Part shown: positions 1 to 63,381 of the stretch, in pieces | Layout of the letters: every line of letters starts with the position of its first letter | How positions within the stretch are numbered: the first letter of the stretch is position 1 | Assembly: GCF_018598225.1 (NCBI RefSeq) | Contig: NZ_JAHESF010000034.1 | Span: forward strand, 1 to 64,000 | DNA: 64,000 bases | Source of the DNA: Chryseosolibacter histidinae | Lineage (GTDB): Bacteria > Bacteroidota > Bacteroidia > Cytophagales > Cyclobacteriaceae | Direction of reading: 5' to 3' | Translations under genes and position numbers: made by a program | The notes under the pieces: model-generated | What the model was told of the DNA's origin: nothing | The model's database searches: none | Seen by the model: the letters and a program-made list of their open reading frames with translations, nothing else

Positions 1-62
1 CCTTACTCCTTACTCCTTACTCCTTACTCCTTACTCCTTACTCCTTACTCCTTACTCCTTTT
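1..62. repeat. Heptamer array, CCTTACT word, next to a stop codon
   Basis: About eight exact tandem copies of the 7-mer CCTTACT run from the window edge to the stop codon of the PD40 gene at 63. It is the most regular of the heptamer arrays in the window. Any inverted partner arm would lie to the left, outside the window. The array may continue off the edge. Confidence 0.95.
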
Positions 63-1292
63 TCACTGATACAACCTCACCTCTATCACTCCCCGCTGTG
101 TTTTTTCAATGTCGAACACCTGCTCCTCGTTCACCCGCGAAGGATCTATGCCCGACCGCCTCAGGTATTCATTGATGACCTTCAGGCGTTCCCTGCTCAC
201 CACGCTGTCTTCCTCCTCCTTTACCACAAGGTGGAATCTTAAATCCTTCTGCAGCATGAGCTTGTTCACGATGTAAAAGATCAGCTCCTTCTGGGCCGCG
301 GTAAGCAGCGACGACTTGTGGGGGAATACGAAATCGGCATTGACATTTTTGCCAACGATGCTGTTCCACTCGTCTGCTGTGACGTAACGCTGCCCCTGTG
401 CGAGAATGCTTTTACCCTGATGTACTTTGGCCTGATAGAGGTCTGCATACTGGCTCTCACGGTTGCTGGAAAAATAAGCGATGCTGTCGCCATAGATTGA
501 GAAATAAGCGTCAAACTTTTTAGAATTCACGCTGCTTCCGAGGTTCACCGGCACCGACCAGGTTTCCCATGAGTCGTAGAGGCGTTCGCTGTAAAAAATA
601 TCCGCGTCGCCCATTCCCTTGTGACCGTTGCTGGCAAAGTATAAACGTTTTTTGTCTGCCGAAAGAAAGGGCGAGATCTCATAACCTGAGGTATTGACAG
701 TAGCACCCAGGTTGCGCGGTTTACTCCATGCACCAGCAATATCTTTAACACTGAAATAGAGGTCTTCACTGCCCCGGCTGTCGGGTGCTTTCATGGAGAG
801 AAAGATCACATCCAGGTCTGGTGAAACATAAAATCCTATAAAATCAAAATTATCGATGCCGGGAATGTAGATCAGCTGCGGACGGCTCCAGCTATTCCCC
901 GTCCGTTTTGAGAAGTAGATACCGTTCATTTTGTGGAAGGGTGACGCATCCACAAAATACAGTGTGTTCCCATCCCTGCTCATGCCTATCGTCACATTGT
1001 TATTCCGGTTGTTGACAGACCCGAGGGCATTCGTCGCTTTTTTCCACGACCCGTTAACCCGCTCACTCACCCACACATCCTGCCCCGCGTATTCGCCACC
1101 TTCGTTGTTCTCGTACAACGCACGGCTGAAGTAAAGTTTTTTGCCATCGGGCGATAGCAGCGGCATGCCTTCTTCGGCCGAAGTGTTCACCGTGCCGGGC
1201 AGCCTGGTCACATCGTGGAACTCCAGGAGCTGAGCGAACACCAGTGACGAGCAGCAAAGCAAAAAACAACAGAGTACCGATGTCTTTACCAT
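63..1292 (-). CDS. PD40 beta-propeller protein with degenerate OmpA-like C-terminus (PorE-like)
   Basis: 409 residues. A signal peptide ends near VFAQ (about residue 21). Residues 40-290 carry PD40/WD40-like strands (LLSPDGKKLYFSR, PFLSADKKRLYFAS), the fold of T9SS lipoproteins such as PorE and of PD40-OmpA proteins. The last 90 residues have the spacing of an OmpA-like domain (VFPHKSSLLTAAQ, then RERLKVINEYLRRSGID). The usual GHTD peptidoglycan-binding segment is replaced by VVKEEED, so binding to peptidoglycan is doubtful. The start overlaps the PorP/SprF gene by 7 bp, so the two are probably translated together. With the giant adhesin upstream they form one surface-display unit. Family assignment is firm; the role as a periplasmic or outer-membrane T9SS accessory is inferred. 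Confidence 0.8.
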   Translation of the reverse strand: MVKTSVLCCFLLCCSSLVFAQLLEFHDVTRLPGTVNTSAEEGMPLLSPDGKKLYFSRALYENNEGGEYAGQDVWVSERVNGSWKKATNALGSVNNRNNNVTIGMSRDGNTLYFVDASPFHKMNGIYFSKRTGNSWSRPQLIYIPGIDNFDFIGFYVSPDLDVIFLSMKAPDSRGSEDLYFSVKDIAGAWSKPRNLGATVNTSGYEISPFLSADKKRLYFASNGHKGMGDADIFYSERLYDSWETWSVPVNLGSSVNSKKFDAYFSIYGDSIAYFSSNRESQYADLYQAKVHQGKSILAQGQRYVTADEWNSIVGKNVNADFVFPHKSSLLTAAQKELIFYIVNKLMLQKDLRFHLVVKEEEDSVVSRERLKVINEYLRRSGIDPSRVNEEQVFDIEKTQRGVIEVRLYQ

Positions 1293-2281
1293 ATATATTG
1301 CGTGAATTTTTTCAGGTTGTTCAGCCGCGCAGCCATCACTAGCTCGTGGCTTCCATCGTCGAACTTTCTGAAATCACCTACTGACATTTCAAAAGAATAG
1401 GTTGCCGTAAACGTATCGTTGATGTTGAAGCCCAGCATGACCACACCGCTCTTGATGTCGCGATACGTAAGGCCCAGGAGCACTTTGTTCTGGATGGATG
1501 CCTTTACACCATAGTCCACAACGAGGTCGTTGTTCATCTGCAGCAGCGCCAGGATGCTGGGTTTGAGCGTGATGTCTGCATTCACGGGAAACGCTATGCC
1601 TGCCTGCACCGACCCGCGGTAGAACGGATCTTCCATGGCCAGGTCGGAAGACTGAAGCGCGATGTTGACCAGTGGCAGATAGGAAACACCGATATAAAAA
1701 TTCTCCAGGTACAACAATGCACCCGCGCGAATGTTGAGATCAGTTTGTGCGCTGGAGCTTCTCAGCAGGTAATTGTAATATTCATCCGGATCGCGTACAT
1801 CCACGGAAGCAACATCCATCTTCCGGTTCTCCACCAGGGCCGAGAGTCCGAACGCAAGCCGCGACTTGCTGCTCAGCGGATAATTGAGCGAATAGCTCAT
1901 GCCCGCCCCTATCGATTTCAGAATGCCCACTTTCGATTGGAACACATTCACACCGAGTCCCTGGATCATACGTTTCGACCGCGGGAGCTGCTCCGTACGC
2001 GTGGCTGCCAGACTGCTTAGGCGTTGTGAATTATACATAAGGTCCAGCGGATGTTTGATGCGTTTCTGGTACGAGAGGTTGATGAACTTGGGAGCGTATT
2101 TCCCAAAGCCCGACCATTGATGGCGGTAGCTCAGCTTCAGGTCGTCGTAGTTCTCCACGCCGGTAAAGGCAGGGTTGAACAATGACATGAACTGGAATGC
2201 CTGCGAGTTGTTGGGCACGTACTGCGCATAGAGCGTGGTGGACATGATGGCAAGCGCTATGCCTGATAAAAGTTTCTTCAT
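1286..2281 (-). CDS. Type IX secretion system membrane protein, PorP/SprF family
   Basis: 331 residues with a signal peptide ending near LYAQ. The family signature NPAFTGVENYDDLKLSYRHQW lies near residues 37-57, followed by alternating beta strands of an outer-membrane barrel. PorP/SprF proteins are barrels needed for export or surface attachment of partner cargo, classically SprF for the adhesin SprB. The gene lies 3 bp downstream of the giant adhesin, whose C-terminal domain belongs to the class that depends on such a partner. It overlaps the following PD40 gene. A dedicated export partner for that adhesin is the most likely role. The family is certain; the pairing is inferred from gene order. 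Confidence 0.9.
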   Translation of the reverse strand: MKKLLSGIALAIMSTTLYAQYVPNNSQAFQFMSLFNPAFTGVENYDDLKLSYRHQWSGFGKYAPKFINLSYQKRIKHPLDLMYNSQRLSSLAATRTEQLPRSKRMIQGLGVNVFQSKVGILKSIGAGMSYSLNYPLSSKSRLAFGLSALVENRKMDVASVDVRDPDEYYNYLLRSSSAQTDLNIRAGALLYLENFYIGVSYLPLVNIALQSSDLAMEDPFYRGSVQAGIAFPVNADITLKPSILALLQMNNDLVVDYGVKASIQNKVLLGLTYRDIKSGVVMLGFNINDTFTATYSFEMSVGDFRKFDDGSHELVMAARLNNLKKFTQYIW

Positions 2282-2284
2282 AGT

Positions 2285-9020: not shown

Positions 9021-9050
9021 ATAGAAGGTATTAGGCAAAGGACCGTAGGC

Positions 9051-9184
9051 AATGGTCCATAGTCGATAGTCCATGGTCCGTAGACACGTCGTGTAAACTT
9101 GATAGCGTAGGCTCCGACCGTGAATGTTCAGTCGTACCTGCCATGGACCATCGACCATGGACCATCGACCATGGACTATGGACC
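9051..9184. repeat. Heptamer palindrome, GTCCATG/GTCGATA words
   Basis: Left arm 9051-9084 reads GGTCCAT, AGTCGAT, AGTCCAT, GGTCCGT. Right arm 9139-9184 is the inverted form (CCATGGA, CCATCGA alternating, then CTATGGA) with an unbroken 7-nt period. About 55 bp separate the arms. The right arm begins after CTGCC and ends at the stop codon of the histidine kinase (9185). It fills the gap between convergent genes. Confidence 0.93.
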
Positions 9185-12775: not shown

Positions 12776-12957
12776 AAGGAGCAAGGAGTAAGTAGCAAGG
12801 AGTAAGGAGGGCTACGAAAGAACGACCCGGTAAAATTTACCTGCCCCCCTCGCATCGGGGTGGTAGAAGTGGTCAATGGTCAATAACACAGCCTTCGAAC
12901 AGCGACTCCTTACTCCTTAATTCTTACTCCTTACTCCTTCTTTCAACCTTACTCCTT
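12776..12957. repeat. Heptamer palindrome, AAGGAGT word, running into the DUF72 gene
   Basis: Left arm 12776-12810 reads AAGGAGC, AAGGAGT, AAGTAGC, AAGGAGT, AAGGAGG. Right arm 12905-12957 is inverted (CTCCTTA words, period 7). The right arm covers the last codons of the DUF72 gene (stop at 12917) and specifies its tail KEGVRSKN. It lies between convergent genes. Confidence 0.92.
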
Positions 12958-13675: not shown

Positions 13676-13710
13676 CGGTGTCTCTCCGAGCATAATTATG
13701 CCAAGGACTA

Positions 13711-13874
13711 GAAGCCAGGAGCCAGGAGTCAGAAGCCAGAAGGCCTCCGATCCGGGATGGGGACTGTGATTAAGGGATGCCTGGCACCTGTTTGAGATGG
13801 ATTCGATAGCTTCGAAGCACGTCATTATAACCTAACACCCGCCGCTCCTGGCTCCTGACTTCTGACTTCTTTTT
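13711..13874. repeat. Heptamer palindrome, GGAGCCA/GAAGCCA words, in a divergent gap
   Basis: Left arm 13711-13742 reads GAAGCCA, GGAGCCA, GGAGTCA, GAAGCCA. Right arm 13844-13874 is its inverse (GCTCCTG, GCTCCTG, ACTTCTG, ACTTCTT). It sits between the starts of the DUF72 and rhomboid genes, where a terminator would not be expected. Confidence 0.92.
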
Positions 13875-15330: not shown

Positions 15331-15375
15331 CATGGAGCACATCCGCCTCAAACAGACGAGCTTAATTTTTTGTTA

Positions 15376-15512
15376 GTCCACAGTCGACAGACCACAGTTC
15401 ACGGTAGAGTCTCCCAAGTTTCCCCTTTACACCCCGATTATAGGATCTGTTTCAGGGTTATGACTCAGAAACAACACTACCTGCCGTGGACCGTAGACTG
15501 TGGCCGTGGACT
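15376..15512. repeat. Heptamer palindrome, GTCCACA/GTCGACA words
   Basis: Left arm 15376-15404 reads AGTCCAC, AGTCGAC, AGACCAC, AGTTCAC. Right arm 15481-15512 is inverted and begins with CTGCC. It ends 3 bp before the stop codon of the penicillin-binding protein gene (15515). Convergent gap. Confidence 0.9.
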
Positions 15513-17827: not shown

Positions 17828-17889
17828 TAACGTAAAATGCTGTTCCTCGATATAGGCTTCCGGATAAAACGGCGAAATGTTCGAAGAAA

Positions 17890-18001
17890 GTCCATAGTCC
17901 AGGGTCGATGGTCCACAGCCGCGCAGTGCTGATCTGTCACGTTACGAAGCACTGCCAGACCTTCGCCAATCTGCCATGGACTATGGACTATGACCTATCG
18001 A
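17890..18001. repeat. Heptamer palindrome with nested 8-bp palindrome, divergent gap
   Basis: Left arm 17890-17919 reads AGTCCAT, AGTCCAG, GGTCGAT, GGTCCAC. Right arm 17973-18001 is inverted and preceded by CTGCC. Inside lies a perfect pair GCAGTGCT (17923-17930) and AGCACTGC (17948-17955). It sits between the starts of the PBP and EcsC genes. Confidence 0.9.
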
Positions 18002-21134: not shown

Positions 21135-21137
21135 ATC

Positions 21138-21211
21138 AGTTGACAGTTGACAACAAAACAGTTGACAAAAGGGCGAGTATTGTCAATTGCCTCTTGTCAA
21201 CTGTCAATTTT
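21138..21211. repeat. Heptamer palindrome, GTTGACA word
   Basis: Left arm 21138-21169 has three AGTTGAC words. Right arm 21181-21211 reads TTGTCAA, TTGCCTC, TTGTCAA, CTGTCAA, then TTTTTT. It fits between the convergent stop codons at 21134 and 21213. The final T6 run would make this example also work as a plus-strand terminator. Confidence 0.92.
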
Positions 21212-22348: not shown

Positions 22349-22435
22349 AAAATCTTTGTCTTTAACCTATGCTGCTCTACTCCTTGATTTTCTCAAATAA
22401 CACCGTACCATGTCTCGTTGACCTCCCCTTCCCCT

Positions 22436-22471
22436 CCTGACTCCTTACTCCTGGCTTCTGGCTCCTTTTCA
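22436..22471. repeat. Single-arm heptamer array mixing two words
   Basis: CTCCTGA, CTCCTTA, CTCCTGG, CTTCTGG, CTCCTTT, period 7. It mixes the inverted forms of the AAGGAGT and GGAGCCA words in one array. No second arm is seen. Confidence 0.8.
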
Positions 22472-22523: not shown

Positions 22524-23627
22524 ATGAATATCAACGGCGAATCACCGGCATACTTGCGCATCAGTCTGAACCTGATCACCATCACTTTGCTTGCAACAGC
22601 GCTTTACCTTGGAAAGAGCATCCTGATCCCGCTCTTTTTTTCCATGCTGTTAGCCATCCTCCTCCATCCTGTTGTGAGTTTCCTGGTCCGCAGGAGGTTA
22701 GACCGCGTTGCCTCCATCCTCATCAGCATTATCCTTGCCTTGTGCGTGATCGGCGTGGTAGTGTATTTTCTTTCCAGCCAGGTAAGTCACTTCCTCGATG
22801 ACATACCTACGCTGAAAGACAGGTTGAAAGACCTGGCCACCACTGTGAAGCACTGGGTCTATGACACCTTCAACATCGCCATTCGCGATCAGAACCAATA
22901 CATCGATAAAACCGCCGAGCAGATGTCTGACGACACACCGACCCTCGTACAACGTACTGTGCTTACGCTGACGGAGATGGTCTCTTATGTGATCTTCCTT
23001 CCCGTCTATACATTCCTGATCCTCTATCATAAAGACATGTTCAAACGTTTCCTGATCGAAGTATTCCAGCGAAACGAAAAAGCCAGGGTGACGGAGATCC
23101 TGGACGAGTCACAATATATCTGCCAGCAGTATGTTACCGGTATGCTGATCGAGCTTGTGATCGTGTTCGCCCTGAACTCAGCGGGGTTCCTGATCCTCGG
23201 CATCAAGTACCCGATCTTCCTTGCCCTCATTTCCGCGCTGCTCAACATCGTTCCATACATCGGCATGCTCATCGCCAACCTCTTCTGTGTGCTGGTCACG
23301 CTGGTGTCTTCCGATCCGGGCTTCAACGTGCTCTGGGTGGTTGGGATCCTCAGTGCTGTACAGGTATTGGATAACAACATTCTGCTGCCTTACATTGTTG
23401 GAAGCAAGGTGAGGATCAACGCGCTGGCCATCATCCTTGGGGTGGTGGTTGGAGGCGCGCTCTGCGGAATACCCGGCATGTTCCTGTGCATCCCCGGCCT
23501 TGCCATCATGAAAGTTATTTTTGAAAGGATCGATTCCCTGAAGCCCTGGGCCGTGCTGCTGGGTGACGAGACCACCGCTGCACTGGAGCATAAGAATCCG
23601 ATTAAAAGGATGCTGAGGAAGAAGTAG
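22524..23627 (+). CDS. AI-2E family transporter (PerM/TqsA-like)
   Basis: 367 residues with about eight membrane segments. The family hallmark is visible: hydrophobic start, soluble middle (about 85-150), then NIVPYIGMLIANLFCV and the terminal DNNILLPYIVGSKVRINALAIILGVVVGG. Family members export autoinducer-2 or exchange Na+/H+, and others have unknown substrates. The stop codon TAG overlaps the first bases of a heptamer array. Confidence 0.9.
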   Translation: MNINGESPAYLRISLNLITITLLATALYLGKSILIPLFFSMLLAILLHPVVSFLVRRRLDRVASILISIILALCVIGVVVYFLSSQVSHFLDDIPTLKDRLKDLATTVKHWVYDTFNIAIRDQNQYIDKTAEQMSDDTPTLVQRTVLTLTEMVSYVIFLPVYTFLILYHKDMFKRFLIEVFQRNEKARVTEILDESQYICQQYVTGMLIELVIVFALNSAGFLILGIKYPIFLALISALLNIVPYIGMLIANLFCVLVTLVSSDPGFNVLWVVGILSAVQVLDNNILLPYIVGSKVRINALAIILGVVVGGALCGIPGMFLCIPGLAIMKVIFERIDSLKPWAVLLGDETTAALEHKNPIKRMLRKK

Positions 23628-23931
23628 TCCATGGTCCACGGTCGACAGTCCACAGTCCACGGCAGTGTTCCATCTACGCGCGAAACCAGCCCCCTTATTC
23701 CGTCATGCTGAGCAAGGAATGTGGGGAGCATGCGGGGAGCGAAGCATCCCCTTCAAGCGAAGTGCGCAAGTTTAGACAGATGCAAGAACTAATTACGCAG
23801 TTAACATCACGGGTCCTTCTCTCGCACTTCCGATAGCCATCGGGACCACCCTCATCCATCGCTCAGAATACGGTTTCACCCAATACCGGTTTCAGCGCGG
23901 TACTGCTGTGGACCGTGGACCGTGGACTGAA
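23626..23931. repeat. Heptamer palindrome filling a convergent gap, with nested inner palindrome
   Basis: Left arm 23626-23663 reads AGTCCAT, GGTCCAC, GGTCGAC, AGTCCAC, AGTCCAC, then GGCAGTG. Right arm 23904-23931 begins CTGCTGTGGA and ends at the stop codon of the MlaD gene (23932). The left arm begins inside the stop codon of the AI-2E gene. Between them lies a second inverted pair: CGTCATGCTGAGCAAGG (from 23701) against CGCTCAGAATACGG (to 23874). The 304-bp gap has no gene. Confidence 0.9.
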
Positions 23932-26482: not shown

Positions 26483-26805
26483 CTTGAAAGACTTATCATC
26501 ATCACATCCGCTTCAGATTCTATTAGTATGCCATTGCCGCCGCTGCACGAACTGGGTAAAAATGGACGGGAACAACAAAAAAAGATCTGGGTAAACCTAA
26601 GCACTTCAATTTCACTGTAGAATTTTGTACTCATAACTGTAAAATGGTAATCGGTAGATGGTAACCGGTAATCGGTGTTAGTGATAACCAACCAAGCCGA
26701 TCACTGATTACCGATCACCGGTTACCGATTACCGGTCACTGATCACCGACTCAAGAGGGCACAAGATTTTGACTTCCGGCCACAAACAACACGGCAGGAG
26801 ACCAC
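26483..26805. other. 323-bp divergent gap between the mla operon and tamB
   Basis: No gene. The first 160 bp are probably promoter DNA for mlaE; I could not pick a convincing box. From 26644 to 26751 it holds a heptamer palindrome (listed separately). A GGAG lies 7 bp before the TamB start codon. Confidence 0.5.
26644..26751. repeat. Heptamer palindrome, GGTAATC/GGTAACC words, divergent gap
   Basis: Left arm 26644-26676 reads TGGTAAT, CGGTAGA, TGGTAAC, CGGTAAT. Right arm 26698-26751 holds seven inverted words (CGATCAC, TGATTAC, CGATCAC, CGGTTAC, CGATTAC, CGGTCAC, TGATCAC) with an unbroken period of 7. It lies 55 bp before the TamB start. Confidence 0.95.
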
Positions 26806-34923: not shown

Positions 34924-34962
34924 AAGAAGCCAGGAGCCAGGAGTAAGAAGCCAGGAGGCGAA
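34924..34962. repeat. Single-arm heptamer array mixing GGAGCCA and GGAGTAA words
   Basis: GAAGCCA, GGAGCCA, GGAGTAA, GAAGCCA, GGAGGCG with period 7. Only one arm is clear. The mix of two words in one array links families that are separate elsewhere in the window. Confidence 0.85.
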
Positions 34963-36576: not shown

Positions 36577-36720
36577 TTGTTGCCAGTTGCCGGTTACCAG
36601 TTGCCGGGTCTGAGCAGTGTAATGTCAAAGTTCAGTGCGTTGATCTCAAACTGATCGAAGCCTGGTATGTGAAATCGGGGAGGTACGAAACCGGCTACCT
36701 GGCAACTGGCAACCGGTAAC
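36577..36720. repeat. Heptamer palindrome, GTTGCCA/GTTACCG words
   Basis: Left arm 36577-36607 reads GTTGCCA, GTTGCCG, GTTACCA, GTTGCCG. Right arm 36694-36720 reads GCTACCT, GGCAACT, GGCAACC, GGTAACC. It fills the gap between the stop codons at 36572 and 36722 (convergent genes). Confidence 0.92.
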
Positions 36721-36721
36721 C

Positions 36722-39593: not shown

Positions 39594-39675
39594 AAAGGAG
39601 TAAGAAGTAAGGAGTAAGTAGAAAGGAGGCTGCGCTCATTCTTACTCCTTACTACTTACTCCTTACTTCTTTTCT
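39594..39675. repeat. Heptamer palindrome, AAGGAGT word, compact hairpin
   Basis: Left arm 39594-39630 reads AAGGAGT, AAGAAGT, AAGGAGT, AAGTAGA, AAGGAGG. Right arm 39639-39675 reads TTCTTAC, TCCTTAC, TACTTAC, TCCTTAC, TTCTTTT. Only 8 bp separate them, so a hairpin of more than 30 bp can form. It lies between two genes on the same strand. Confidence 0.95.
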
Positions 39676-40794: not shown

Positions 40795-41040
40795 GGTCCA
40801 CGGTCCACAGTCGACAGTCCACTTTCCACAGCCCCCACCCCATGAAACCGGTATCCTGAGCGATGCATGTGAGGCGGTAATGTGCGAGCGAATGATCCCC
40901 TATTCTTTACTGCGTACTTACTACGAAAGCTTGTCTTACAAAGTGCACTTCCGCCATATGGGGATCCTTCACTCCCGCCAGCCAACGCACTTCCATCGTT
41001 CAGGATGACGGGCCTAACCGTCTGCGGGTCCGTGGACTAG
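40795..41040. repeat. Heptamer element GTCCACG/GTCGACA with nested inner palindrome
   Basis: Left arm 40795-40830 reads GGTCCAC, GGTCCAC, AGTCGAC, AGTCCAC, TTTCCAC. The right arm is short (GGGTCCGTGGACTAG, to 41040). Inside, TATCCTGAGCGATG (40851-40864) and GCGAATGATCCCC face the inverse GGGGATCCTTCACTC and CATCGTTCAGGATGACGGG (to 41012). The same inner palindrome type occurs at 23701-23874. Confidence 0.85.
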
Positions 41041-44846: not shown

Positions 44847-44910
44847 TTAAATTGCGTTTTTTAAGCTGGAATTACGTTTTTTTACAGCCGTGCAAGATAA
44901 GAAATAGTCT

Positions 44911-44993
44911 TCAAGTTTGAAGTTTAAAATTTAAAGTTTCAGGTTCTGGAACCGTGCCTCGCCCAACTTTAAATTTGAAACTTGAAACTTCCA
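44911..44993. repeat. Heptamer palindrome, AAGTTTG word
   Basis: Left arm 44911-44942 reads TCAAGTT, TGAAGTT, TAAAATT, TAAAGTT, TCAGGTT. Right arm 44968-44993 reads AACTTTA, AATTTGA, AACTTGA, AACTTCC. It is A/T-rich, unlike most arrays here, but has the same period and layout. It ends 1 bp before the stop codon at 44995. Confidence 0.92.
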
Positions 44994-44994
44994 A

Positions 44995-46005
44995 CTAATA
45001 AGGGTTGAGCTTCTTCTTGTTCTTCCCCTTGTACTTGATCAGTGTGGGATAGTTCTCGCCGTAGTGGGGGTTCTGCTTTTTGTAGATGGGATGGCGGCGG
45101 CTGCGGTATTCGCGGTTGCCATGGGCATGGTTGATCTGGGCATGGCAATCTTTCAGGAAGCACCTTCTCAACTCGGGTAAACGATAGGTTGCGCCAATGC
45201 TGAGATAAGCGGCATTGAGCCTGTGGGTGATGCTCTGGCTGGTCTCGGGTATCGACAGCTTGTAGTTCTTGAACTCGAACGAGGGCCGCACAAATACCTT
45301 GAAGTACTCTGACATCTCACGCTCCAGGCTCACACCAAGGTTGAAGTACATTCCTTTTTTGATCAGGCTGTCGTCGAACTGGCTGCCGAGCTTGTATCCG
45401 CCCACGTTGGCATCCACTACCACCACGTATTCATAGTAACGATAGACCTTGGCCCCGAGCAGCAGGAAATACTTTTTCAGGAAGAAGTTGTTAGCCTGCG
45501 GCGAAAATGAGCTGATGCTGCCGCCGTAGCTGATGGGTTTGAACTTGCCCAGGTGTGTGAATTCGTAGGAGTATCCCCCGCCGATCCGGTAGCGGTCGAT
45601 TTCCACATGCACCGTTGCCTTCAGGGGGATGCTGAAAGTTTTGCTTCGGAAGCCGATGGTTGCTGTATCTGAGTTCACGGAGAACGCGCCCGACGTTGTG
45701 GGGTATGTGGAAGGTGTTACTTTATTGAACCAGTCGCCATAACGTACGCCCGCGTTATCGTGGTCAAAGATCAGGGGCAGCGAGTCGGGCTGCTGAATGA
45801 TGCCGAAGCTGTCGAGCTTGTGATTGACGAATACCTGGCCGTAACCAGTGCTAAGGCTCACGTGGAGCTTGCTGAGCAACAACCGCAGCACACCACTCTT
45901 CTGGCGCTCGATGTAAAAATGCTCAAGGGGTATGGTGGCAGCCTTTTCGGACTTGTATTGCGCCCAAAGCAGCGGCATACCCGCCAGGGTGAACACCAGG
46001 GTCAA
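44995..46005 (-). CDS. Outer-membrane beta-barrel protein with basic C-terminal tail
   Basis: About 336 residues from a TTG at 46005. No ATG, GTG or TTG lies upstream before an in-frame stop, although upstream residues (RPKSIVLKRLTAI) would complete a good signal peptide ending PLLWAQ. The start is therefore uncertain. The main part has alternating strands and aromatic girdles of a barrel (RIGGGYSYEFTHLG, YFNLGVSLEREMSEYFKVFVRP). The last 50 residues are very basic (KGKNKKKLNPY) and contain HPIYKKQNPHYGENYP, a segment that looks conserved rather than random. Function unknown. It is the last gene of a probable operon with the COG3014 and LpoB-like genes. Confidence 0.7.
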   Translation of the reverse strand: MTLVFTLAGMPLLWAQYKSEKAATIPLEHFYIERQKSGVLRLLLSKLHVSLSTGYGQVFVNHKLDSFGIIQQPDSLPLIFDHDNAGVRYGDWFNKVTPSTYPTTSGAFSVNSDTATIGFRSKTFSIPLKATVHVEIDRYRIGGGYSYEFTHLGKFKPISYGGSISSFSPQANNFFLKKYFLLLGAKVYRYYEYVVVVDANVGGYKLGSQFDDSLIKKGMYFNLGVSLEREMSEYFKVFVRPSFEFKNYKLSIPETSQSITHRLNAAYLSIGATYRLPELRRCFLKDCHAQINHAHGNREYRSRRHPIYKKQNPHYGENYPTLIKYKGKNKKKLNPY

Positions 46006-49587: not shown

Positions 49588-49620
49588 AGCTGTGGACTGT
49601 CGACTGTCGACCGTGGACTG
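49588..49620. repeat. Single-arm heptamer array, GTCGACA/GTCCACG words
   Basis: CTGTGGA, CTGTCGA, CTGTCGA, CCGTGGA, CTGTCA; period 7. It ends at the stop codon of the GH28 gene (49621). A clear second arm is not seen. Confidence 0.85.
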
Positions 49621-51312
49621 TCACCCTCTCACCTTCGCAGCACTCTCCTTCGCACCATTGGTAGCGGCTAAAACCTTCGATGCTTTTCTCAGGTCGCCTC
49701 CGTCAATGATAATACCTTCGGAGTCTGTGCCTTCGAGCTGCAGGAAAACTTTGGCTGGCGTGAGCACCCGCGTGGCAGACAGCAGCACATCTTTCGATCG
49801 TGTGAAACGCATCACACTCTCCGCGTCAGGATTACCCTGTACATTCAGGGATGCGATCGAAGCGTCCTGCACATTATCAAACACCACCGCGGGACGCAGG
49901 TCGGGCTGCTCATATTCAAGACGTACATTCTGAAGGGTAAGTCCTTTCACATTGCGGGCATACAGGCCATAGGCAGGTGGTCCGAACGGCGCGGTACCCC
50001 ACACGCCAAAGTATTCGCTGGTGATCTGCGGCACATCACGTTTGGCGGCCTGTGCTGCGGTTCCTCCACCGGCATAGGTCACGTGCACATCTGTAAAGCT
50101 GATGTTCTCGAGGTAAGCATCGCCCATGCCGTTGAGGGTGATGCAGGAGTTCACTTCGCCGTCGTAGACACTTACTTCGAACGGAATATCAGGGTGGTTG
50201 ACGGGACGCGGTACTACCGTGGCGCGGATGCTATTGAAGACAATATTTCTTACAAACGACTGCCGCTCATTTTCTTCGCTCTGGCTGGTATTGCCTCCGT
50301 TGCCTTTTCTTCCAAACCCGATGCCGATAGGGCCCGTTACATTTCGCATCACTATGTTGGAGAAAGTAAGGTTCTCGATCTGTGCGCGGCCGGCGCTGAT
50401 CTTGATGGGGCACCCATATGTCTCATAGATCAGGCAATTAGTTACGGCGATGTTCTGTGCTTCGCCACCGCCGAACCGGAAGATGGACCAGCGCGTGCTG
50501 AAGGTACAGTTGGTGATGGTAACAAATTGATTGCTTCCAAACAACGCGCAGGCATCATCCTGGCAGGCTACATCACAATTGGAGACGTGTACATGCTGGC
50601 TGCTGTTGAAGTGGAATCCATCGTTATTCTTGTTGATGCGGTTATAGATCCTCACGCCCTGGATGTTCACATACTTACATTGTAAAATGCGGAAACAGTG
50701 ATAGGCGCTGCGGGTGAAGAATGTATCACGCACCACGAGGTTGTTGCATTTATAAAAGATGACGAGGTGAGGCCGGTCAACGTTACCGCCTACCTGTCCT
50801 CCGGGACCAGTGCCATCTCCTTTGCCGGTATAAAACGTGCCACCATTTCCATCGATGGTGCCGCGTCCTTCAATGGTAACATTGTCTGCGTTAGCTGCAA
50901 AGAGCATCACGATGTTTCCGTTCCCTGAAGGTACACCTTTGCCATCCTGGTAATCTTTCCGTTGCGTGCTGCCCAGCAAACGACCCTGCACGGCCAGATG
51001 AAGCGTGACATTGCTTTTCAGTTCGATCGTACCGACAATAAAATCGCCTGCAGGCACCAGCACTGTGCCTCCCTTATCGCGATGCGCTGCGTCGATGGCA
51101 GTCTGCACAGCCGCCGTATCGAGCGAAGTGCCATCGCCCTTGGCTCCGAAGTCGCGAATGTTATAGATCTTTGCGCCCAGGAGCTTGTCATCGTTTGCCG
51201 GTGTTGGTGTTGCGGCATTCGCTTCGGAGCCCAGGAGCGCTACCCCAACCGTGGTGGCAAGCGCAGGAGCGGAAACTTGTTCAAACCATTGGCGTCTGGA
51301 AAGCAGGTTCAT
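49621..51312 (-). CDS. Secreted glycoside hydrolase family 28-like protein (polygalacturonase-type)
   Basis: 563 residues. The N-terminus (LSRRQWFEQVSAPALATTVGVALLGSEANA) has a twin arginine and looks like a Tat signal. A pectate-lyase-type right-handed beta-helix begins YNIRDFGAKGDGTSLDTAAVQTAIDAA, typical of GH28. Candidate catalytic segments are NNDGFHF (NxD-like) and CQDDACAL (DD); the usual GHG motif is not obvious. It may cut pectin-like or other uronic-acid polymers. It is a single gene, not in a polysaccharide-use locus (no SusC/SusD seen). Confidence 0.85.
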   Translation of the reverse strand: MNLLSRRQWFEQVSAPALATTVGVALLGSEANAATPTPANDDKLLGAKIYNIRDFGAKGDGTSLDTAAVQTAIDAAHRDKGGTVLVPAGDFIVGTIELKSNVTLHLAVQGRLLGSTQRKDYQDGKGVPSGNGNIVMLFAANADNVTIEGRGTIDGNGGTFYTGKGDGTGPGGQVGGNVDRPHLVIFYKCNNLVVRDTFFTRSAYHCFRILQCKYVNIQGVRIYNRINKNNDGFHFNSSQHVHVSNCDVACQDDACALFGSNQFVTITNCTFSTRWSIFRFGGGEAQNIAVTNCLIYETYGCPIKISAGRAQIENLTFSNIVMRNVTGPIGIGFGRKGNGGNTSQSEENERQSFVRNIVFNSIRATVVPRPVNHPDIPFEVSVYDGEVNSCITLNGMGDAYLENISFTDVHVTYAGGGTAAQAAKRDVPQITSEYFGVWGTAPFGPPAYGLYARNVKGLTLQNVRLEYEQPDLRPAVVFDNVQDASIASLNVQGNPDAESVMRFTRSKDVLLSATRVLTPAKVFLQLEGTDSEGIIIDGGDLRKASKVLAATNGAKESAAKVRG

Positions 51313-51430: not shown

Positions 51431-51453
51431 CTCTGTCAGCTTATAGATCTTGT

Positions 51454-51996: not shown

Positions 51997-52040
51997 AAGT
52001 TCAAAGTTGAAATTCTTGTAAGCCTAAAAATTGTTATACC

Positions 52041-52048
52041 CAAAGTTA
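52041..52048 (-). promoter_or_regulatory. -7 promoter box of the ferritin gene
   Basis: TAACTTTG on the minus strand, an exact TAnnTTTG, 44 bp before the ATG at 51996. The expected -33 TTG is weak. Confidence 0.4.
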
Positions 52049-52106
52049 AGGATATGGCCCTTAAACAGGAAGAAAAGTACCGGCGTGACGCTAATTTGAA
52101 ATCAGT

Positions 52107-52439: not shown

Positions 52440-52816
52440 GCGAGATCCGTATTTGATGGCGTAAAGGTCTTATTTAGATTAAATTTAAACAAGACTATTA
52501 GCACAAATAAATTACAAGGTCAGAATCTGGTGTGGACGGCACAGGAAGTTCACTGGAATTAATCACAAGTCATTGGTAAACAAATCATTAGGTTAAAATC
52601 GTCCTGATCGAGGTTTCCTGTTACGTGCCAAATGATGCGAAGATCGATCTGGATTACCTGTGGCACGTTAAAATCCCGGAACGCAATATCCCCGGGCTTC
52701 ACCCGGGAGATATTGATCCGGGCTTAATGCACTTTCTGGATGCGGAATACCTAGCGCATTTTCTCAGGTGGTAATTTTCTTTGTGACGGTCGCCAGATGT
52801 AAATCCCGACTCCTGG
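52440..52816. other. 377-bp gap with a dispersed structured repeat
   Basis: No gene seen. 52440-52617 holds nothing recognisable. 52619-52715 is copy 2 of the structured repeat (listed separately). A heptamer array starts near 52803 and runs into the next gene's 3' end. Confidence 0.6.
52619..52715 (+). repeat. Dispersed structured repeat, copy 2
   Basis: Same element as 35041-35172, opposite orientation. Stem I: ACGTGCCA (52623-52630) and TGGCACGT (52661-52668). Stem II: AATATCCCCGGG and CCCGGGAGATATT around CTTCA. Compared with copy 1 the stem II bases differ on both sides and still pair. Confidence 0.8.
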
Positions 52817-52848
52817 CTACTTACTCCCGGCTCCTGGCTTCTTTTTTA
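52803..52848. repeat. Heptamer array writing the C-terminus of the next gene
   Basis: GACTCCT, GGCTACT, TACTCCC, GGCTCCT, GGCTTCT, then TTTT; period 7. The stop codon of the minus-strand gene (52817) and its last codons (tail KKKPGAGSK) lie in the array. Confidence 0.88.
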
Positions 52849-54439: not shown

Positions 54440-54650
54440 GGCGTAAAGGTAGTGAATTTGGTGGAAGTTGGGAAGGAGACGAATTGGTGTGACAGCGGTT
54501 GTCAATTCTTACAGGAAGTCACCTCCTTCGCTATGGTTTGATCTTGTCTGGGGAGCGTTTTGGAGTTTTGTTTGTAAAAATCTGCTTAACTTGCGTTCAG
54601 ATTACGACAAAAAACTTGCGGAAACTGCTTTAACCCTCAACACTTTTCCG

Positions 54651-55070: not shown

Positions 55071-55201
55071 AAGCTAACCGAAGATGGTCCAAGTTTGAAA
55101 ACTTGAGTTAAAAAACAGCACAAGTCTCCCGCATGCCAACACACGAGCCAAGACTTGCGCTAGTTTAAACAAGTATAAGAATTAAGTTAGCTGGATTACA
55201 A

Positions 55202-55621
55202 TCAGAAGCGGTATCGCAGTGTTAGACCAGCCTGGCGCGGCGAGACGTTTGCTCCTACCGTAAGCGCATCGAACTTGCGCTGGTACCTCCCCTCGTTTAC
55301 ACCTCCTACAATCCACAATGGAACACCAACTCCGACACAAACAGTTCCACCCAAATAGGCGGCAAGTCCAGCACCGAAGTTTCCATCGGTAGTGGTTTGT
55401 GAATAAGGGCCGTTCTGTGTGGTCGTAACACTGGAGTTCAGCAGGGTTACAAATCCGACAATAGAAAGTGCAGTACCTGCAATGGTAAGCGTGGTGCCTG
55501 TGCGTTTCATCCGGTGGTACTTCTCAACTTTTGTAAGATACAAAGCTTTATCAGGATCGAGCTGTGCAAAGACCTGAGCGCTGACGAACAGCAGAAAGAT
55601 CACGAAGAAGAAGTGTTTCAT
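55202..55621 (-). CDS. Secreted hypothetical protein, 139 residues
   Basis: Signal peptide MKHFFFVIFLLFVSAQVFAQ. A charged helix (ALYLTKVEKYHRMKRTG) is followed by two hydrophobic glycine-rich segments (TTLTIAGTALSIVGFVTLLNS; AGLAAYLGGTVCVGVGVPLWIVGG). The C-terminus ends RYRF as in outer-membrane proteins. Type of protein common in Bacteroidota, function unknown. A CAAATATA (inverse of TATATTTG) lies 15-22 bp upstream. Confidence 0.7.
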   Translation of the reverse strand: MKHFFFVIFLLFVSAQVFAQLDPDKALYLTKVEKYHRMKRTGTTLTIAGTALSIVGFVTLLNSSVTTTQNGPYSQTTTDGNFGAGLAAYLGGTVCVGVGVPLWIVGGVNEGRYQRKFDALTVGANVSPRQAGLTLRYRF

Positions 55622-55635
55622 AGGGATTTTTATTT

Positions 55636-55643
55636 CAAATATA
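55636..55643 (-). promoter_or_regulatory. TAnnTTTG -7 box upstream of the 139-residue secreted protein
   Basis: TATATTTG on the minus strand, an exact match to TAnnTTTG, 15 bp before the ATG. No good -33 box. Confidence 0.35.
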
Positions 55644-55681
55644 ACCTATTAGCGCCAGATGCCGGGCATAACAAAAATCCA

Positions 55682-56899: not shown

Positions 56900-57274
56900 A
56901 GTAAGGTTTATTTTATTTTCAATTTCAGCGATATCAAATGGTTGCCTCCGAGGCTTCTTCACGGGGTGACAAATCAACGGCAATATTCTCTGTGGCTGTG
57001 ACAACCGGTGACAATCATACCTTTACCGCCTGACTTTCAGAAAGCCAGTGATCGACATAACAAAAGATCCACAGCAGAAAGAAACGCAGGCGCTCGCAAT
57101 GATTTGTATTGGGGGGCTCCCAAAAAGGAAATGCATAGAAGGAGCAGTTAGGTACTTGCTTTAAAAGTAAACCTATCTGTACACCTGCGCAAGCGTTGGC
57201 AGGTATGTTAAGAAAAAATTAATGCTAATGATTTTGCACACAGTCACACACATGTCACTTACAGGCATTTACAT
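56900..57274. other. 375-bp gap
   Basis: No gene. One short imperfect hairpin (CTGACTTTC against GAAAGCCAG, 57029-57047) is seen. It could end the transcript of the subtilase gene. Nothing else stands out. Confidence 0.4.
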
Positions 57275-59656: not shown

Positions 59657-60223
59657 ATGCCACTAAAAACGGTAGTAAAGGTCGGAAATATATCAAATCT
59701 TAGTGATGCACGCTATTGCGCCGGGATGGGTGTGGATATGCTTGGCTTTTCGGTAGTGGCAGGCAGCACCGATTATGTGCTCCCGAAGCTGTTCCAGGAG
59801 ATCCGCGGGTGGGTTTCGGGCCCCAGGTTTGTAGCCCAGATCTACGGCCTGAGCGTGCAAGAGCAACTTCCGGAGATCGTTCAGAACTATGCCCCGGATT
59901 ACTTCGAGCTCGACGCGCAAACATTTAAAAAGTACGGTGCCCATCTTTCCCTTCCCTGCATCGTTGCCGTCACGAAAGAGGAATTTGCCTCACTCCGTAA
60001 CAATAACAACATCGCTTATTTTCTGATGGATGAAGCTGCCGTGTCAGGGGCCGAAAACAACAGCACGCCCATATTACTAAAGGTCGACTCAGCCAACGGC
60101 CTCCAGCAGAAACTGGATCGCTATCAGCTTACCGGAGTTGCGTTGAACGGCTCGCCCGAGATCAGGCCTGGGTTTAAAGATTACAATGAATTGGCGGAGA
60201 TACTTGAGTTGTTGGATGAATAA
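59657..60223 (+). CDS. TrpF-like protein lacking the catalytic cysteine
   Basis: 188 residues. It aligns along the start of phosphoribosylanthranilate isomerase: KVGNISNLSDARYCAGMGVDMLGF equals KICGITNLEDA...GAD.vGF. The catalytic Cys of KICG is Gly here, and the substrate-binding Arg of the following SPR/SKR motif is absent (STDY). A candidate for the catalytic Asp remains in FLMDEAAVSG. The glycine-rich phosphate loop is altered (LNGSPE). The protein is short by about 15-20 residues. No other trp gene is near. It is likely not an active TrpF; a binding or new role is possible. Confidence 0.75.
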   Translation: MPLKTVVKVGNISNLSDARYCAGMGVDMLGFSVVAGSTDYVLPKLFQEIRGWVSGPRFVAQIYGLSVQEQLPEIVQNYAPDYFELDAQTFKKYGAHLSLPCIVAVTKEEFASLRNNNNIAYFLMDEAAVSGAENNSTPILLKVDSANGLQQKLDRYQLTGVALNGSPEIRPGFKDYNELAEILELLDE

Positions 60224-60385
60224 AGTCCATGGTCCATGGTCGATAGTCCATGGCAGTGAGGTGTGAAGGTACGAGGTACGCTTTACGAAGTACGATTAGC
60301 CGACGTCACACTACACGACTATGGACCATGGACCATTGACTATGGACTGACGTTGTCAATTGCCCTTTGTCAACTGTTAACTGTT
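60224..60385. repeat. Heptamer palindrome with two words (GTCCATG; GTTGACA)
   Basis: Left arm 60224-60260 reads AGTCCAT, GGTCCAT, GGTCGAT, AGTCCAT, GGCAG. Right arm 60317-60348 reads CTATGGA, CCATGGA, CCATTGA, CTATGGA. Directly after it a second word set follows (TTGTCAA, TTGCCCT, TTGTCAA, CTGTTAA; 60353-60385). The last part contains the stop codon (60377) of the TPR gene. Convergent gap. Confidence 0.9.
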
Positions 60386-60886
60386 CTCCAGTAACTGCTT
60401 CTTCCTTTCACATCGCTTAATAGACTCCGCTGCTGTCTCGATGCTTTTGGCATCGAATGAGTTTTTAATGTGAAGTCTGAAATAGTGGATGGCGTCATCG
60501 AAATTTCCCTGCATCTCACGCATGAGCCCATACTCATTGTACAGGGTGGCGTAATTGATACCGGAAACACCCACAGCAGTCTGCAGCAGTTTTTCGAGCT
60601 CGTCGAATTTGCGCAGGGAAGCCAGCAGGTAACAATAGTTGTAATACGCCGCGGTGTAGTCGGGCGAGAATTTCAGGGCGAGCCTGTAATGTTCTTCTGC
60701 GCGCGCCAGGTTCTTGAACTTGGTTTCGAACAGCCAGCCCAGGTGGTTGTGGGCTTTGCCGAAGTCGGGCACTTCTGCCAGGATCTCTTCCAGCATTTTT
60801 GCAGCTTCGCTCAGCCGGCTGTCGGCAATGAGCTGGTCGGCCTGCAGAAATTTCTCTTCGATATCAAAATTGGTCTCCTCTCGCAT
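60377..60886 (-). CDS. Soluble TPR protein, 169 residues
   Basis: From the ATG at 60886 (MREETNFDIEEKFLQADQLI); an upstream in-frame start at 60994 would overlap trmB by 88 bp. Three TPR units are visible: EAAKMLEEILAEVPDFGKAHNHLGWLFE, AEEHYRLALKFSPDYTAAYYNYCYLL, and LYNEYGLMREMQGNFDDAIHYFRLHI. No signal peptide. It is 20 bp downstream of trmB on the same strand and probably on the same transcript. The partner is unknown. Confidence 0.82.
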   Translation of the reverse strand: MREETNFDIEEKFLQADQLIADSRLSEAAKMLEEILAEVPDFGKAHNHLGWLFETKFKNLARAEEHYRLALKFSPDYTAAYYNYCYLLASLRKFDELEKLLQTAVGVSGINYATLYNEYGLMREMQGNFDDAIHYFRLHIKNSFDAKSIETAAESIKRCERKKQLLENS

Positions 60887-60906
60887 ATATCGTTGACTTA
60901 GGTTTT

Positions 60907-61566
60907 TTACGACTTGAAACGGAATCTCAGGTATTTGATCTTTTCTCCCTTGGCGGCGAACTCTTCTTCGTACCGTGTTTTGATGTCGAAGCACTCGGGG
61001 CGAAGCTCGGAGCTATAAAGGTCGTCCGTGAACTTCAGGTCCGTGATGTCTTCCCGCGCCTGCATCTCTTCAAGGGTATATTCGTACAGTTTTGTATTGT
61101 CTGTCTTCAGCCTGATGTAGCTGCCGGGTTTCACCAGCTTCTTGTACATCGCTATAAATCTGGGGCTGGTGAGCCTGCGTTTGATGTCGCGCTTGCGTGG
61201 CCTGGGATCGGGAAATGTAAGCCAGATCTCATCCACCTCTCCGGGCTGAAAAAAATTCTCGATCAGCAAGATCTGTGTTCTCAGGAAGGCCACGTTTTGC
61301 AACTTCTCTTCCTCCGCCCACGAGCTCCCCTTCCAGATGCGCTCACCCTTGATATCTACGCCAATAAAATTCTGATTTGAAAAAAGCCTGGCAAGTCCCA
61401 CGGTATATTCTCCCCTGCCACACGCCAGCTCCAGCGTGATGGGCGATTCGTTCCTGAAATAAGCTTCGTTCCACTTGCCTTTGATGGTCTGATACAGCGG
61501 CTTGCTGGGTTCAATTACATTTAAACGTTCTTCGATGATCTTAAAACGTTCTTGTTTACGTTTCAC
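60907..61566 (-). CDS. trmB: tRNA (guanine-N7-)-methyltransferase
   Basis: 219 residues. SAM-binding motif ITLELACGRGEYTVGLA, second motif NFIGVDIKGERIWKG, and the family's FPDPRPRKRDIKRRLTSPRF. It methylates G46 in tRNA variable loops. It lies 13 bp after folC and 20 bp before a TPR gene, all on one strand. Confidence 0.97.
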   Translation of the reverse strand: MKRKQERFKIIEERLNVIEPSKPLYQTIKGKWNEAYFRNESPITLELACGRGEYTVGLARLFSNQNFIGVDIKGERIWKGSSWAEEEKLQNVAFLRTQILLIENFFQPGEVDEIWLTFPDPRPRKRDIKRRLTSPRFIAMYKKLVKPGSYIRLKTDNTKLYEYTLEEMQAREDITDLKFTDDLYSSELRPECFDIKTRYEEEFAAKGEKIKYLRFRFKS

Positions 61567-62866: not shown

Positions 62867-62904
62867 GGGGTATTGCCTACGCGAGCAAAACTGGGCATAG
62901 AAAC

Positions 62905-63162
62905 GCAAAAATACAAAAATACAAAACGCAAAGAACGCTAAGGAAAACGCAGAGAAATGCAGGTAGGCCTCCCTGTGATCTTCGCAGATTTACATGAATC
63001 GGTCATCTGTTATTGTAGAAGAGCGCAAAGGTTTCGCTGACGCTCTTTCAGAGGAAGGAGTACAATATCTCCGCGGATCTCTGCGCCTTCTCCGCGTTCT
63101 CAGCGGTTAAAAAAAAACTTTGTGAGCTTTGCGCTTCTTAGCGGCTTTGCGCGAACTGCATT
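62905..63162. repeat. Dispersed CGCAAAG/CTTTGCG repeat in a 296-bp gap
   Basis: The gap 62867-63162 has no gene. Left part has AAATACA repeats (period 8) and CGCAAAG, CGCAGAG words; right part (about 63070-63160) has CTCTGCG, CCGCGTT, CTCAGCGG, an A9 run and then CTTTGCG words. It is related to the element at 10954-11090. Confidence 0.75.
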
Positions 63163-63381
63163 CTAAAGGCCGATGTCTCCTTTCGGAAGGTTAAACTGAT
63201 CGGCGCTCATGCGGATGATGGCAAGCATCTCCTGGTAGGCTATGATCTTGGCTTCGATGTGGGTAAGCTCTTCGGGGTCGGCGAAGTTTTTGCGCTCTGT
63301 GAGCTCATGAAGGTTTTCGTGAATGGAGATGAGCACATCCTGGATGAATTCGATGTATCGCTGCTCCCCCATTGAAAGCAT
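63163..63381 (-). CDS. Small hypothetical protein, 72 residues
   Basis: Soluble, helical and acidic (MLSMGEQRYIEFIQDVLISI, then DPEELTHIEAKIIAYQEMLAIIRMSADQF). A start at the second Met (63372) is possible. It lies 14 bp after the TonB gene, so it is probably co-transcribed. Family unknown. Confidence 0.65.
   Translation of the reverse strand: MLSMGEQRYIEFIQDVLISIHENLHELTERKNFADPEELTHIEAKIIAYQEMLAIIRMSADQFNLPKGDIGL

What the first reader, a model, noticed from the sequence alone, without database searches (positions are those of the whole stretch)
1..63165. A family of intergenic elements that share a 7-nt period, layout and position but not sequence
About twenty gaps in 64 kb carry arrays with a 7-nt period. 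The word differs by locus: CCTTACT (1-60), GTCCATG (9051, 60224), AAGGAGT (12776, 39594), GGAGCCA (13711), GTCCACA/GTCGACA (15376, 23626, 40795, 49588), GTTGACA (21138), GGTAATC (26644), GTTGCCA (36577), AAGTTTG (44911). Most have two inverted arms of 28-50 bp around a loop of 8-240 bp. Different sequences with the same period, arm length and gene-end position point to one process that writes or keeps 7-nt units and not to copies of one transposon. Words vary at fixed positions (GTCSAYR; GGTRAYC). Mixed arrays (22436, 34924, 52803) connect word families. Heptamer repeats of cyanobacteria (STRR) are the closest thing I know of, but they are not described as inverted arms at stop codons.
Basis: partly seen in the sequence, partly recalled or inferred. 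Interest (0 to 1): 0.85.

Follow-up and report, generated by a model that had tools for sequence, protein, structure and literature searches.

The report
Seven-letter hairpin arrays at gene ends
This bacterium's genome carries very many short DNA hairpins whose arms are strings of seven-letter words, mostly seated directly behind the stop signals of genes; the words differ between families and often between species while the layout stays the same, which points to a shared but still unidentified cause.

Summary
In the window's gaps lag-7 identity is 0.302, against 0.260 (maximum 0.272) in 200 Markov shuffles. In 1.66 Mb of this 8.04 Mb Cyclobacteriaceae-like genome 363 period-7 arrays score 12 or more; nine other periods from 3 to 13 give 1-29.

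They are neither one repeat nor plain slippage. About eight word families share a layout: inverted arms, most often four heptads, round a loop. In the best-sampled family (GTCSAYR) 89 of 114 arms have exactly four units, 34 of 34 neighbouring pairs face the same way, and a GTGTK motif recurs 8 nt inside the arm. Loops are almost all unrelated.

Array edges lie a median 3-4 nt from stop codons, replicated in held-out DNA. Convergent gaps are most often occupied. Gene ends with an array seldom keep an intrinsic terminator (9 of 133 against 61 of 269). Occupied gaps are longer than a relative's. Both species have arrays at five orthologous stop codons, three with clearly different words.

Best reading: several REPIN/MITE-like palindromic families settled behind stop codons. 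RNA-pairing tests were negative; no transposase was found. Closest in print: G-rich heptamers of Xanthomonas and Nostoc (PMC4692102).

The parts
1..60 (.). CCTTACT x 8.6, right-type arm directly behind the stop of the minus-strand gene 63-1292; partner not seen (window edge)
   Evidence: TRF 100% match
9052..9183 (.). GTC-family hairpin (GTCCATG/GTCGATR arms 9052-9079 and 9141-9183, 61-nt loop) filling the convergent gap 9021-9184
   Evidence: RNA fold z -3.85
12776..12939 (.). AAGGAGT-family hairpin (arms 12776-12809 and about 12905-12939) at a convergent gene pair; the right arm runs into the end of gene 12917-13825
   Evidence: fold z -2.18
13710..13870 (.). GGAGCCA/GGAGTCA hairpin (arms 13710-13742 and 13844-13870)
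   Evidence: relative has no array in the orthologous gap
15375..15512 (.). GTC-family hairpin at the 3' end of the PBP1A-like gene 15515-17827
   Evidence: fold z -3.92
17889..17998 (.). GTC-family hairpin inside a divergent gap (210 bp here, 86 bp in the genus mate)
   Evidence: fold z -5.02
21137..21210 (.). GTTGACA hairpin filling the convergent gap 21135-21212
   Evidence: fold z -6.09
22434..22466 (.). CTCCTGA/CTCCTTA/CTCCTGG single right-type array upstream of gene 22524-23627
23627..23927 (.). GTC-family element with a 247-nt loop; begins at the stop codon of 22524-23627(+) (TAG|TCCATGG) and ends 4 nt from the stop of 23932-24945(-)
   Evidence: genus mate has an ATTTAAA array at the orthologous stop
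26635..26749 (.). GGTAATC-family hairpin (22-nt loop) in a divergent gap (323 bp here, 193 bp in the genus mate)
   Evidence: fold z -7.20
34925..34957 (.). GGAGCCA/GGAGTAA single left-type array just behind the stop of 34576-34920(+)
36579..36721 (.). GTT-family hairpin (GTTRCCR arms) filling the convergent gap 36573-36721
   Evidence: fold z -5.44
39595..39671 (.). AAGGAGT-family hairpin, 12-nt loop
   Evidence: fold z -7.82
40795..40841 (.). GTCCACG/GTCGACA single left-type array, probably upstream of the true start of 39696-40985(-)
44910..44996 (.). AAGTTTG-family hairpin between gyrA (42336-44846) and 44995-46005(-), at the latter's stop; the genus mate has a degenerate AAGTTGC/AGGTCAC array at the same stop
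   Evidence: fold z -3.99
49590..49621 (.). GTC-family right-type array at the 3' end of 49621-51312(-)
52804..52842 (.). mixed CTCCTGGCTACTTAC array overlapping the 3' end of 52817-54505(-)
   Evidence: score 10
60225..60348 (.). GTC-family hairpin beginning 1 nt behind the stop of 59657-60223(+), with a GTACGAR array (60267-60295) in its loop
   Evidence: fold z -7.32
60353..60385 (.). GTTGACA-type array overlapping the end of 60377-60994(-)
   Evidence: score 10

Best explanation
They are several families of dispersed palindromic elements (REPIN/MITE-like in how they behave) whose two inverted arms are each made of, most often, four tandem heptads, and which come to rest directly behind stop codons. 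Shown: lag-7 arrays, families with alignable arms, four-unit arms, one orientation of arms in each of the two families tested, arms more conserved than loops, stop-codon seating, preference for convergent over divergent gaps, added gap length relative to a genus mate, gene ends with an array poor in intrinsic terminators. Inferred: that whole elements (arms plus loop) were copied and inserted as units by an unidentified recombinase or other copying process in this lineage; that loops then drifted beyond recognition while the arms were held by whatever recognises them; that seating behind the stop is where insertions are harmless or useful, the element there standing in for a terminator or 3'-end barrier. 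The two arms of a GTC element differ from each other more than arms of different elements do, so what is held is probably two recognisable DNA ends and not a perfect RNA stem.
For: Families: 15 word clusters among 132 arms, five of them with 7 or more arms. Arm length: GTC 3:18, 4:89, 5:4, 6:2, 7:1 units (arms of 3 or more units counted); GTT 3:36, 4:30, 5:1, 6:1. Orientation within 150 bp: GTC 34 of 34 left-right, GTT 21 of 22. Motif GTGTK inside GTC arms: 21 of 58 inward flanks against a shuffle mean of 4.8 (maximum 12), 16 of the 21 at position 8. Lineage-specific: 89 places here, 0 of 58 relatives. Insertions: 63 orthologous gaps; the 24 with arrays are a median 70.5 bp longer than the relative's, the 39 without 13 bp shorter; a near-clean empty site at C78:116724-116821. 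Nested elements (60225-60348; C21:63577 region). Stop seating in tandem gaps: 35 of 58 array edges within 10 nt of the stop (uniform-sliding null mean 16.6, maximum 26 of 5000), held-out 27 of 44 (10.3, maximum 18); start side 15 and 12. Occupied gaps of 60-400 bp: convergent 57 of 101, tandem 102 of 283, divergent 17 of 102. Stem plus T-run terminator: 9 of 133 ends with an array at the stop, 61 of 269 without array, p = 4e-5; 21 of 83 with an array elsewhere in the gap. GTC arms within an element: 160 mismatches against 136.7 +- 6.4 when right arms are swapped within the subtype; 1 of 5000 permutations reached 160.
Against: No transposase: 9 left-right spans of 150-6000 bp held three called genes, none with a transposase domain. 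No target-site duplication was recognised in the alignments looked at by eye. No recent copies: 68 loops of 30 nt or more gave 2 pairs at E < 1e-3, so copying of whole elements is not directly seen. In 3 of 8 orthologous gaps tested the loop aligned to the relative's gap better than 98% of shuffles, which would fit arms added round older sequence. The AAGGAGT family does show expansion (up to 13 units), as slippage would give. The A/B asymmetry at one position alone is not significant (12 of 16 opposite, p = 0.07), and the GTT family shows no arm asymmetry (39 mismatches against 36.7) and no GTGTK enrichment (7 of 42 against 5.1).
Confidence: 0.5

Rival explanations
1. RNA 3'-end hairpins: the arrays are kept because the transcript folds into a long stem right behind the stop codon, ending transcription or blocking 3'-to-5' exonucleases. 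Heptad tandems are the raw material, since a stem of repeats still pairs after gaining or losing a unit.
For: Stop seating and convergent preference; few conventional terminators at such ends; ten window elements fold with z from -2.2 to -7.8; slight T-richness outside the arms, 53 of 214 against 34 of 214 further out, p = 0.03; GTC arms followed by T-N-T-T; in Xanthomonas transcripts were reported to start or stop more often at G4-capable heptamers (PMC4692102, section 15 read).
Against: On the sense strand of 65 tandem-gap elements G-U pairs are not more frequent than A-C mismatches (91 against 81, p = 0.49); inner flanks of a loop do not match each other better than swapped ones (p = 0.53 and 0.88). 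GTC arms pair worse within an element than between elements. In phage-gene contig L247 such arrays lie between same-strand tail genes. A 60-90 nt loop is unlike an intrinsic terminator.
Confidence: 0.25
2. Polymerase slippage: heptamer duplications arise because about 7 nt lie in the polymerase contact (a proposal of Mrazek and colleagues, known to me only as cited in PMC4679880 and PMC4692102), with hairpin-mediated template switching making inverted arms, and selection clearing them from everywhere but gene ends.
For: Period 7 itself; AAGGAGT arrays up to 13 units; arms of unequal length in metagenome contig L229; words that differ between orthologous stops.
Against: Fixed four-unit arms, recurring variant-word order, motif at a fixed distance and the same words at many unlinked places. 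Slippage gives no reason for seating within a few nt of the stop.
Confidence: 0.15
3. REP/REPIN elements moved by a RAYT (Y1) transposase.
For: Inverted doublets with less conserved spacers, as in REPINs (PMC3116915, passages read); four Y1_Tnp hits in this genome.
Against: The strongest Y1 gene (C36:40157) is flanked by GCCCTGAAAGGGCG palindromes and no heptad array within 1.5 kb; of the other three, one has a GTACGAR hairpin about 200 bp behind it and two have no array within 3 kb, about the background density.
Confidence: 0.07

Closest known systems
G-rich heptameric repeats of Xanthomonas (GGGNATC) and Nostoc (GGGGAYT), Rehm et al. 2015, PMC4692102 (abstract, passages and section 15 read)
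   Same: Heptad unit, preference for four units, inverted pairs (70 and 75 cases in the two Xanthomonas genomes), seating close to or over stop codons, rare between divergent ORFs, spread over the genome.
   Different: There one G-rich word per genome, read as G-quadruplex. Here about eight words, and no tandem doublet of GGGAATC, GGGGATT or GGGGACT in 1.66 Mb; the same layout without those words speaks against quadruplex formation as the general reason for four units.
REPINs (REP doublets forming hairpins), Bertels and Rainey 2011, PMC3116915 (passages read)
   Same: Dispersed extragenic inverted doublets; spacer less conserved than the ends.
   Different: Arms are heptad tandems; no cognate RAYT recognised.
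Long simple sequence repeats (heptanucleotide class) and TAACTGA repeats, PMC4679880 (passages read)
   Same: Tandem heptamers in intergenic DNA, some Bacteroidetes included.
   Different: TAACTGA repeats lie mostly just before start codons in the Beggiatoaceae; here hairpins behind stop codons; no TAACTGA doublet in 1.66 Mb.
STRR heptamers of cyanobacteria (recalled; only a search listing seen)
   Same: Tandem heptamers, several words.
   Different: Inverted four-unit arms behind stop codons are not part of the description that I recall; not tested here.

Membership tests
Stop-codon heptamer repeats of the Xanthomonas/Nostoc kind | 7-nt unit, four units preferred | tested here: met
   396 arrays at score 11: 4 units 156, 5 units 111, 3 units 29 (short ones under-detected); GTC arms 89 of 114 with four
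Stop-codon heptamer repeats of the Xanthomonas/Nostoc kind | seated at or over the stop codon, rare in divergent gaps | tested here: met
Stop-codon heptamer repeats of the Xanthomonas/Nostoc kind | G-tract word able to form a quadruplex | tested here: not met
   0 doublets of GGGAATC, GGGGATT, GGGGACT in 1.66 Mb; the main words have no GGG tract in every unit
REP/REPIN | inverted doublets, conserved ends, less conserved spacer | tested here: met
REP/REPIN | association with a RAYT gene | tested here: not met
MITE | terminal inverted repeats of fixed length | tested here: met
   GTC family:
MITE | copies with homologous interior | tested here: not met
   2 pairs among 68 loops at E < 1e-3
MITE | target-site duplication and a related transposase | tested here: inconclusive
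   none recognised by eye; no transposase in 9 spans; no closely related strain available
Integron attC sites | integron integrase in the genome | tested here: not met
   TIGR02249: 7 partial matches, none over the cut-off
Intrinsic terminator | short GC stem followed by a T run | tested here: not met
   long stem, loops mostly 60-95 nt in the GTC family, only slight T-richness outside
Known structured RNA (Rfam) | match over a family's gathering score | tested here: not met
   window: two miRNA models below gathering; three metagenome contigs: none

The most novel reading that the evidence does not exclude
A word-independent heptad system: in unrelated bacteria and in phage gene clusters one kind of machinery recognises about four tandem 7-nt units anchored by RGT (A/G-G-T), with any letters between, seats inverted pairs of them behind stop codons, and lets the words turn over between species. 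Support: RGT only in left arms of 57 of 68 elements here (1 with the reverse only) and 55 of 79 in metagenome viral contigs (13 reverse only, 12 of them from one sequence seen three times; these contigs were fetched by two RGT words, so they are biased); stop seating in L247 (6 of 8 gap-first arrays within 12 nt) and L190 (4 of 4) beside tail and head-tail genes. Against: in this genome RGT conservation does not exceed column-permuted words (2.84 bits; null 2.68, maximum 3.19), and most words of the genus mate do not fit it.
Probability: 0.15. Interest if true: 0.85.

Novelty: new variant of a known kind. Interest (0 to 1): 0.6.

Why it matters
Heptamers of four units at stop codons have been explained by quadruplex formation. 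The same architecture with about eight words that lack such G-tracts, in one genome, calls for a common cause other than quadruplexes: either a copying machine that prefers heptad ends or a need at gene 3' ends. It also offers a natural test: orthologous stop codons at which two species carry arrays with different words. If the arrays act at 3' ends, gene-end annotation in such genomes has been missing its main element.

Tried and rejected
RGT as a universal anchor: attractive by eye, not significant here. Strict A/B end asymmetry: seen by eye, weak at the single position (p = 0.07) and absent in GTT. RNA-level selection: G-U against A-C and inner-flank co-variation both negative. RAYT partner and integron integrase: not supported. 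Autonomous element between distant arms: none. Truncation of genes by insertion: 3 of 16 proteins with an array at the stop are 5 or more residues shorter than the ortholog, against 1 of 101 (p = 0.008), but 13 of 16 are not, so the element does not usually make the stop codon. General spread in the family: at score 12 nine of 13 sampled relatives have no period-7 array; genus mates G002 (17 in 241 kb) and G001 (5 in 64 kb), G003 (4 in 60 kb) and G039 (1 in 40 kb) do. Named Bacteroidota loci: 3 of 16 with a period-7 array (L033, L037, L040), no more than periods 8 or 11 gave, so no claim. Similar elements in the plasmid and phage collections: none for one query each. Print search for six of the repeated words: one unrelated paper; searches for heptamers at stop codons led only to the papers cited.
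Full report
What was checked. The window is G000:C50:1-64000 of an 8.04 Mb assembly in 122 contigs. The closest named hit to the window's PBP1A-like protein is a Cyclobacteriaceae MAG at 62% identity. I worked on the window plus 1.6 Mb of the same genome; the last 800 kb served as held-out data for patterns first seen in the first 864 kb.

The period is real. Window gaps: lag 7 0.302, lag 14 0.298, lag 21 0.289, other lags 0.247-0.267, Markov shuffles 0.260 with maximum 0.272 at lag 7. Period-7 segments at score 12: 210 in 864 kb and 153 in 800 kb; the next highest non-multiple periods gave 13 and 21. Scaled to the assembly this would be about 1,750 arrays (inference).

Word families. At score 12 simple word patterns place the 363 arrays as GTC (GTCSAYR) 87, TTT (ARRTTTN) 58, GTT (GTTRCCR) 56, AGG (RGAGYMA) 44, TAC (NTACGAR) 33, ATC (GTRWTCR) 29, GAATNNN 13, GAGAYNT 11, three small ones 6, other 26. 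Different words can follow each other in the same 7-nt phase, for example at C45:78187-78252.

Anatomy. Of 103 neighbouring array pairs within 500 bp, 72 are inverted, 7 direct, 24 neither. Loop length is typical of a family: GTC mostly 60-95 nt, GTT 52-120, ARRTTTN mostly 8-30, TAC mostly 6-35, ATC mostly 12-28. Loops are unrelated to each other: 60 loops gave 7 weak pairs at E up to 0.01, 68 loops of the larger set 2 pairs below 1e-3. The hexamers CGAAGC (9 of 31 loops, 0.9 expected) and CACTGC (8, 0.9 expected) are enriched in GTC and GTT loops. In the GTC family the arm is AGTCCAYR-GTCSAYR-GTCSAYR-GTCCAYR-GC, the C/G variant almost confined to the two middle units; 89 of 114 arms have exactly four units; neighbouring arms within 150 bp face each other in 34 of 34 cases, 15 of 15 in held-out DNA. 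GTGTK lies inside the arm in 21 of 58 flanks (shuffles 4.8, maximum 12), 16 times at exactly 8 nt (held-out: 9 of 24, five at 8). In the GTT family some arms end in GATRGCCAGTT after three units; GTGTK is not enriched there.

Two unlike ends, no sign of RNA pairing. Swapping right arms among GTC elements of the same C/T subtype lowers the number of unpaired positions from 160 to 136.7 +- 6.4; 1 of 5000 permutations reached 160 (also 2000 permutations). Excess differences sit at unit 2 and 3 position 4 and at several position-7 sites. So perfect pairing is not what is kept. On the transcribed strand of 65 tandem-gap elements G-U pairs (91) do not outnumber A-C mismatches (81), and inner loop flanks show no co-variation.

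Where they sit. In tandem gaps of 60-400 bp the outer array edge is within 10 nt of the upstream stop codon in 35 of 58 cases and, held out, 27 of 44; sliding the array span uniformly in its gap gives 16.6 (maximum 26) and 10.3 (maximum 18) in 5000 draws; medians are 4 and 3 nt, against 48 and 63.5 nt on the start side. Occupied gaps: convergent 57 of 101, tandem 102 of 283, divergent 17 of 102 (convergent against divergent p = 3e-9). Gene ends with an array at the stop have a stem plus T-run in the gap in 9 of 133 cases, against 61 of 269 without array (p = 4e-5) and 21 of 83 with an array elsewhere in the gap. Genes were called by a simple codon-usage script, so some starts are uncertain.

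Comparison with genus mates. gyrA is 92% identical in G002 and 89% in G001 and most window genes from 11.2 to 63.9 kb are collinear in G002. Among 117 ortholog pairs, arrays sit at the stop in 16 genes here, 11 in the relative, both in 5, against 1.5 expected (p = 0.007). Of the five, three have clearly different words (GTCCATG against ATTTAAA; GTCCATG against GAATNNN; AAGGAGT against AATTTGA), two related words (GTTGCCA against GTTACGG; TTAGAAT against TTTTAGA). A sixth, beside gyrA, has AAGTTTC here and a degenerate AAGTTGC array below threshold in G002. In 13 of 16 genes the stop codon is within 4 residues of the ortholog's, so the array abuts an older stop. In 63 orthologous gaps the 24 with arrays are a median 70.5 bp longer here, the 39 without 13 bp shorter. 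At C78:116724-116821 the relative shows a near-clean empty site in a divergent gap. Elements nest: a GTACGAR array in the loop at 60225-60348, and an ARRTTTN array round a GTT element near C21:63577.

How wide it goes. GTCCATGGTCCATGGTC with up to one mismatch: 89 places here, none in 58 relatives. Of 13 relatives sampled with 20-241 kb each, four have period-7 arrays, with other words. In IMG/VR contigs the GTC and GTT words occur in 62 and 41 stretches, a 28-nt AAGGAGT run in none. Some of these stretches carry dense heptad hairpins with further words such as AGTAATC, AGTGATC and AGTGGCC, at stop codons, next to tail, head-tail and capsid genes. These contigs were found by the words, so they show that the layout exists elsewhere, not how common it is.

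Reading. The data fit several families of palindromic insertion-like elements sharing one architecture better than slippage alone. Gene-end function is plausible from position and from the scarcity of other terminators, but the pairing tests do not support an RNA stem as the selected trait. The copying machine is unknown. Prior art covers the layout for one G-rich word (PMC4692102) and the commonness of heptamers (Mrazek et al. 2007, known to me only through the passages read of PMC4679880 and PMC4692102); I found no report of several words with this layout in one genome (searches, open-licence papers only).

Noticed in passing
L067 (G000:C36 near 40157); a similar palindrome in the window near 35050-35066: A Y1 (IS200/RAYT-like) transposase gene flanked by GCCCTGAAAGGGCG palindromes, probably its own REP family; AGCCCTGAAGGGCG also occurs in the window behind gene 34576-34920.
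   Followed up: partly
G002 stretches L102, L111, L114, L115: Period-8 arrays, partly as inverted pairs (for example CACATTAA repeats), nearly as frequent as period 7 there (11 against 17 at score 12); hardly any in the window's genome.
   Followed up: no
800 kb: 21 period-9 segments at score 12, more than other non-7 periods; 8 in the first 864 kb.
   Followed up: no
C28:61747-62190 (loop) and L302:500-690: A shared longer repeat with AGGAGGCTCCTATGGAGCC palindromes, in one case inside the loop of a GTC element.
   Followed up: no
window 38047-38244: Imperfect 25- and 34-bp tandem repeats (AATCCTGTAAATCC type) in the gap before gene 38217-39578.
   Followed up: no
window 49470-57274: About 7.8 kb absent from the orthologous junction in G002 (79 bp there), bounded on one side by a GTC array.
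   Followed up: partly
window 10999-11083 and 63000-63170: Two places with similar degenerate CTCTGCG/CTCCGCGTTCTCAGCGG repeats, another dispersed family.
   Followed up: no
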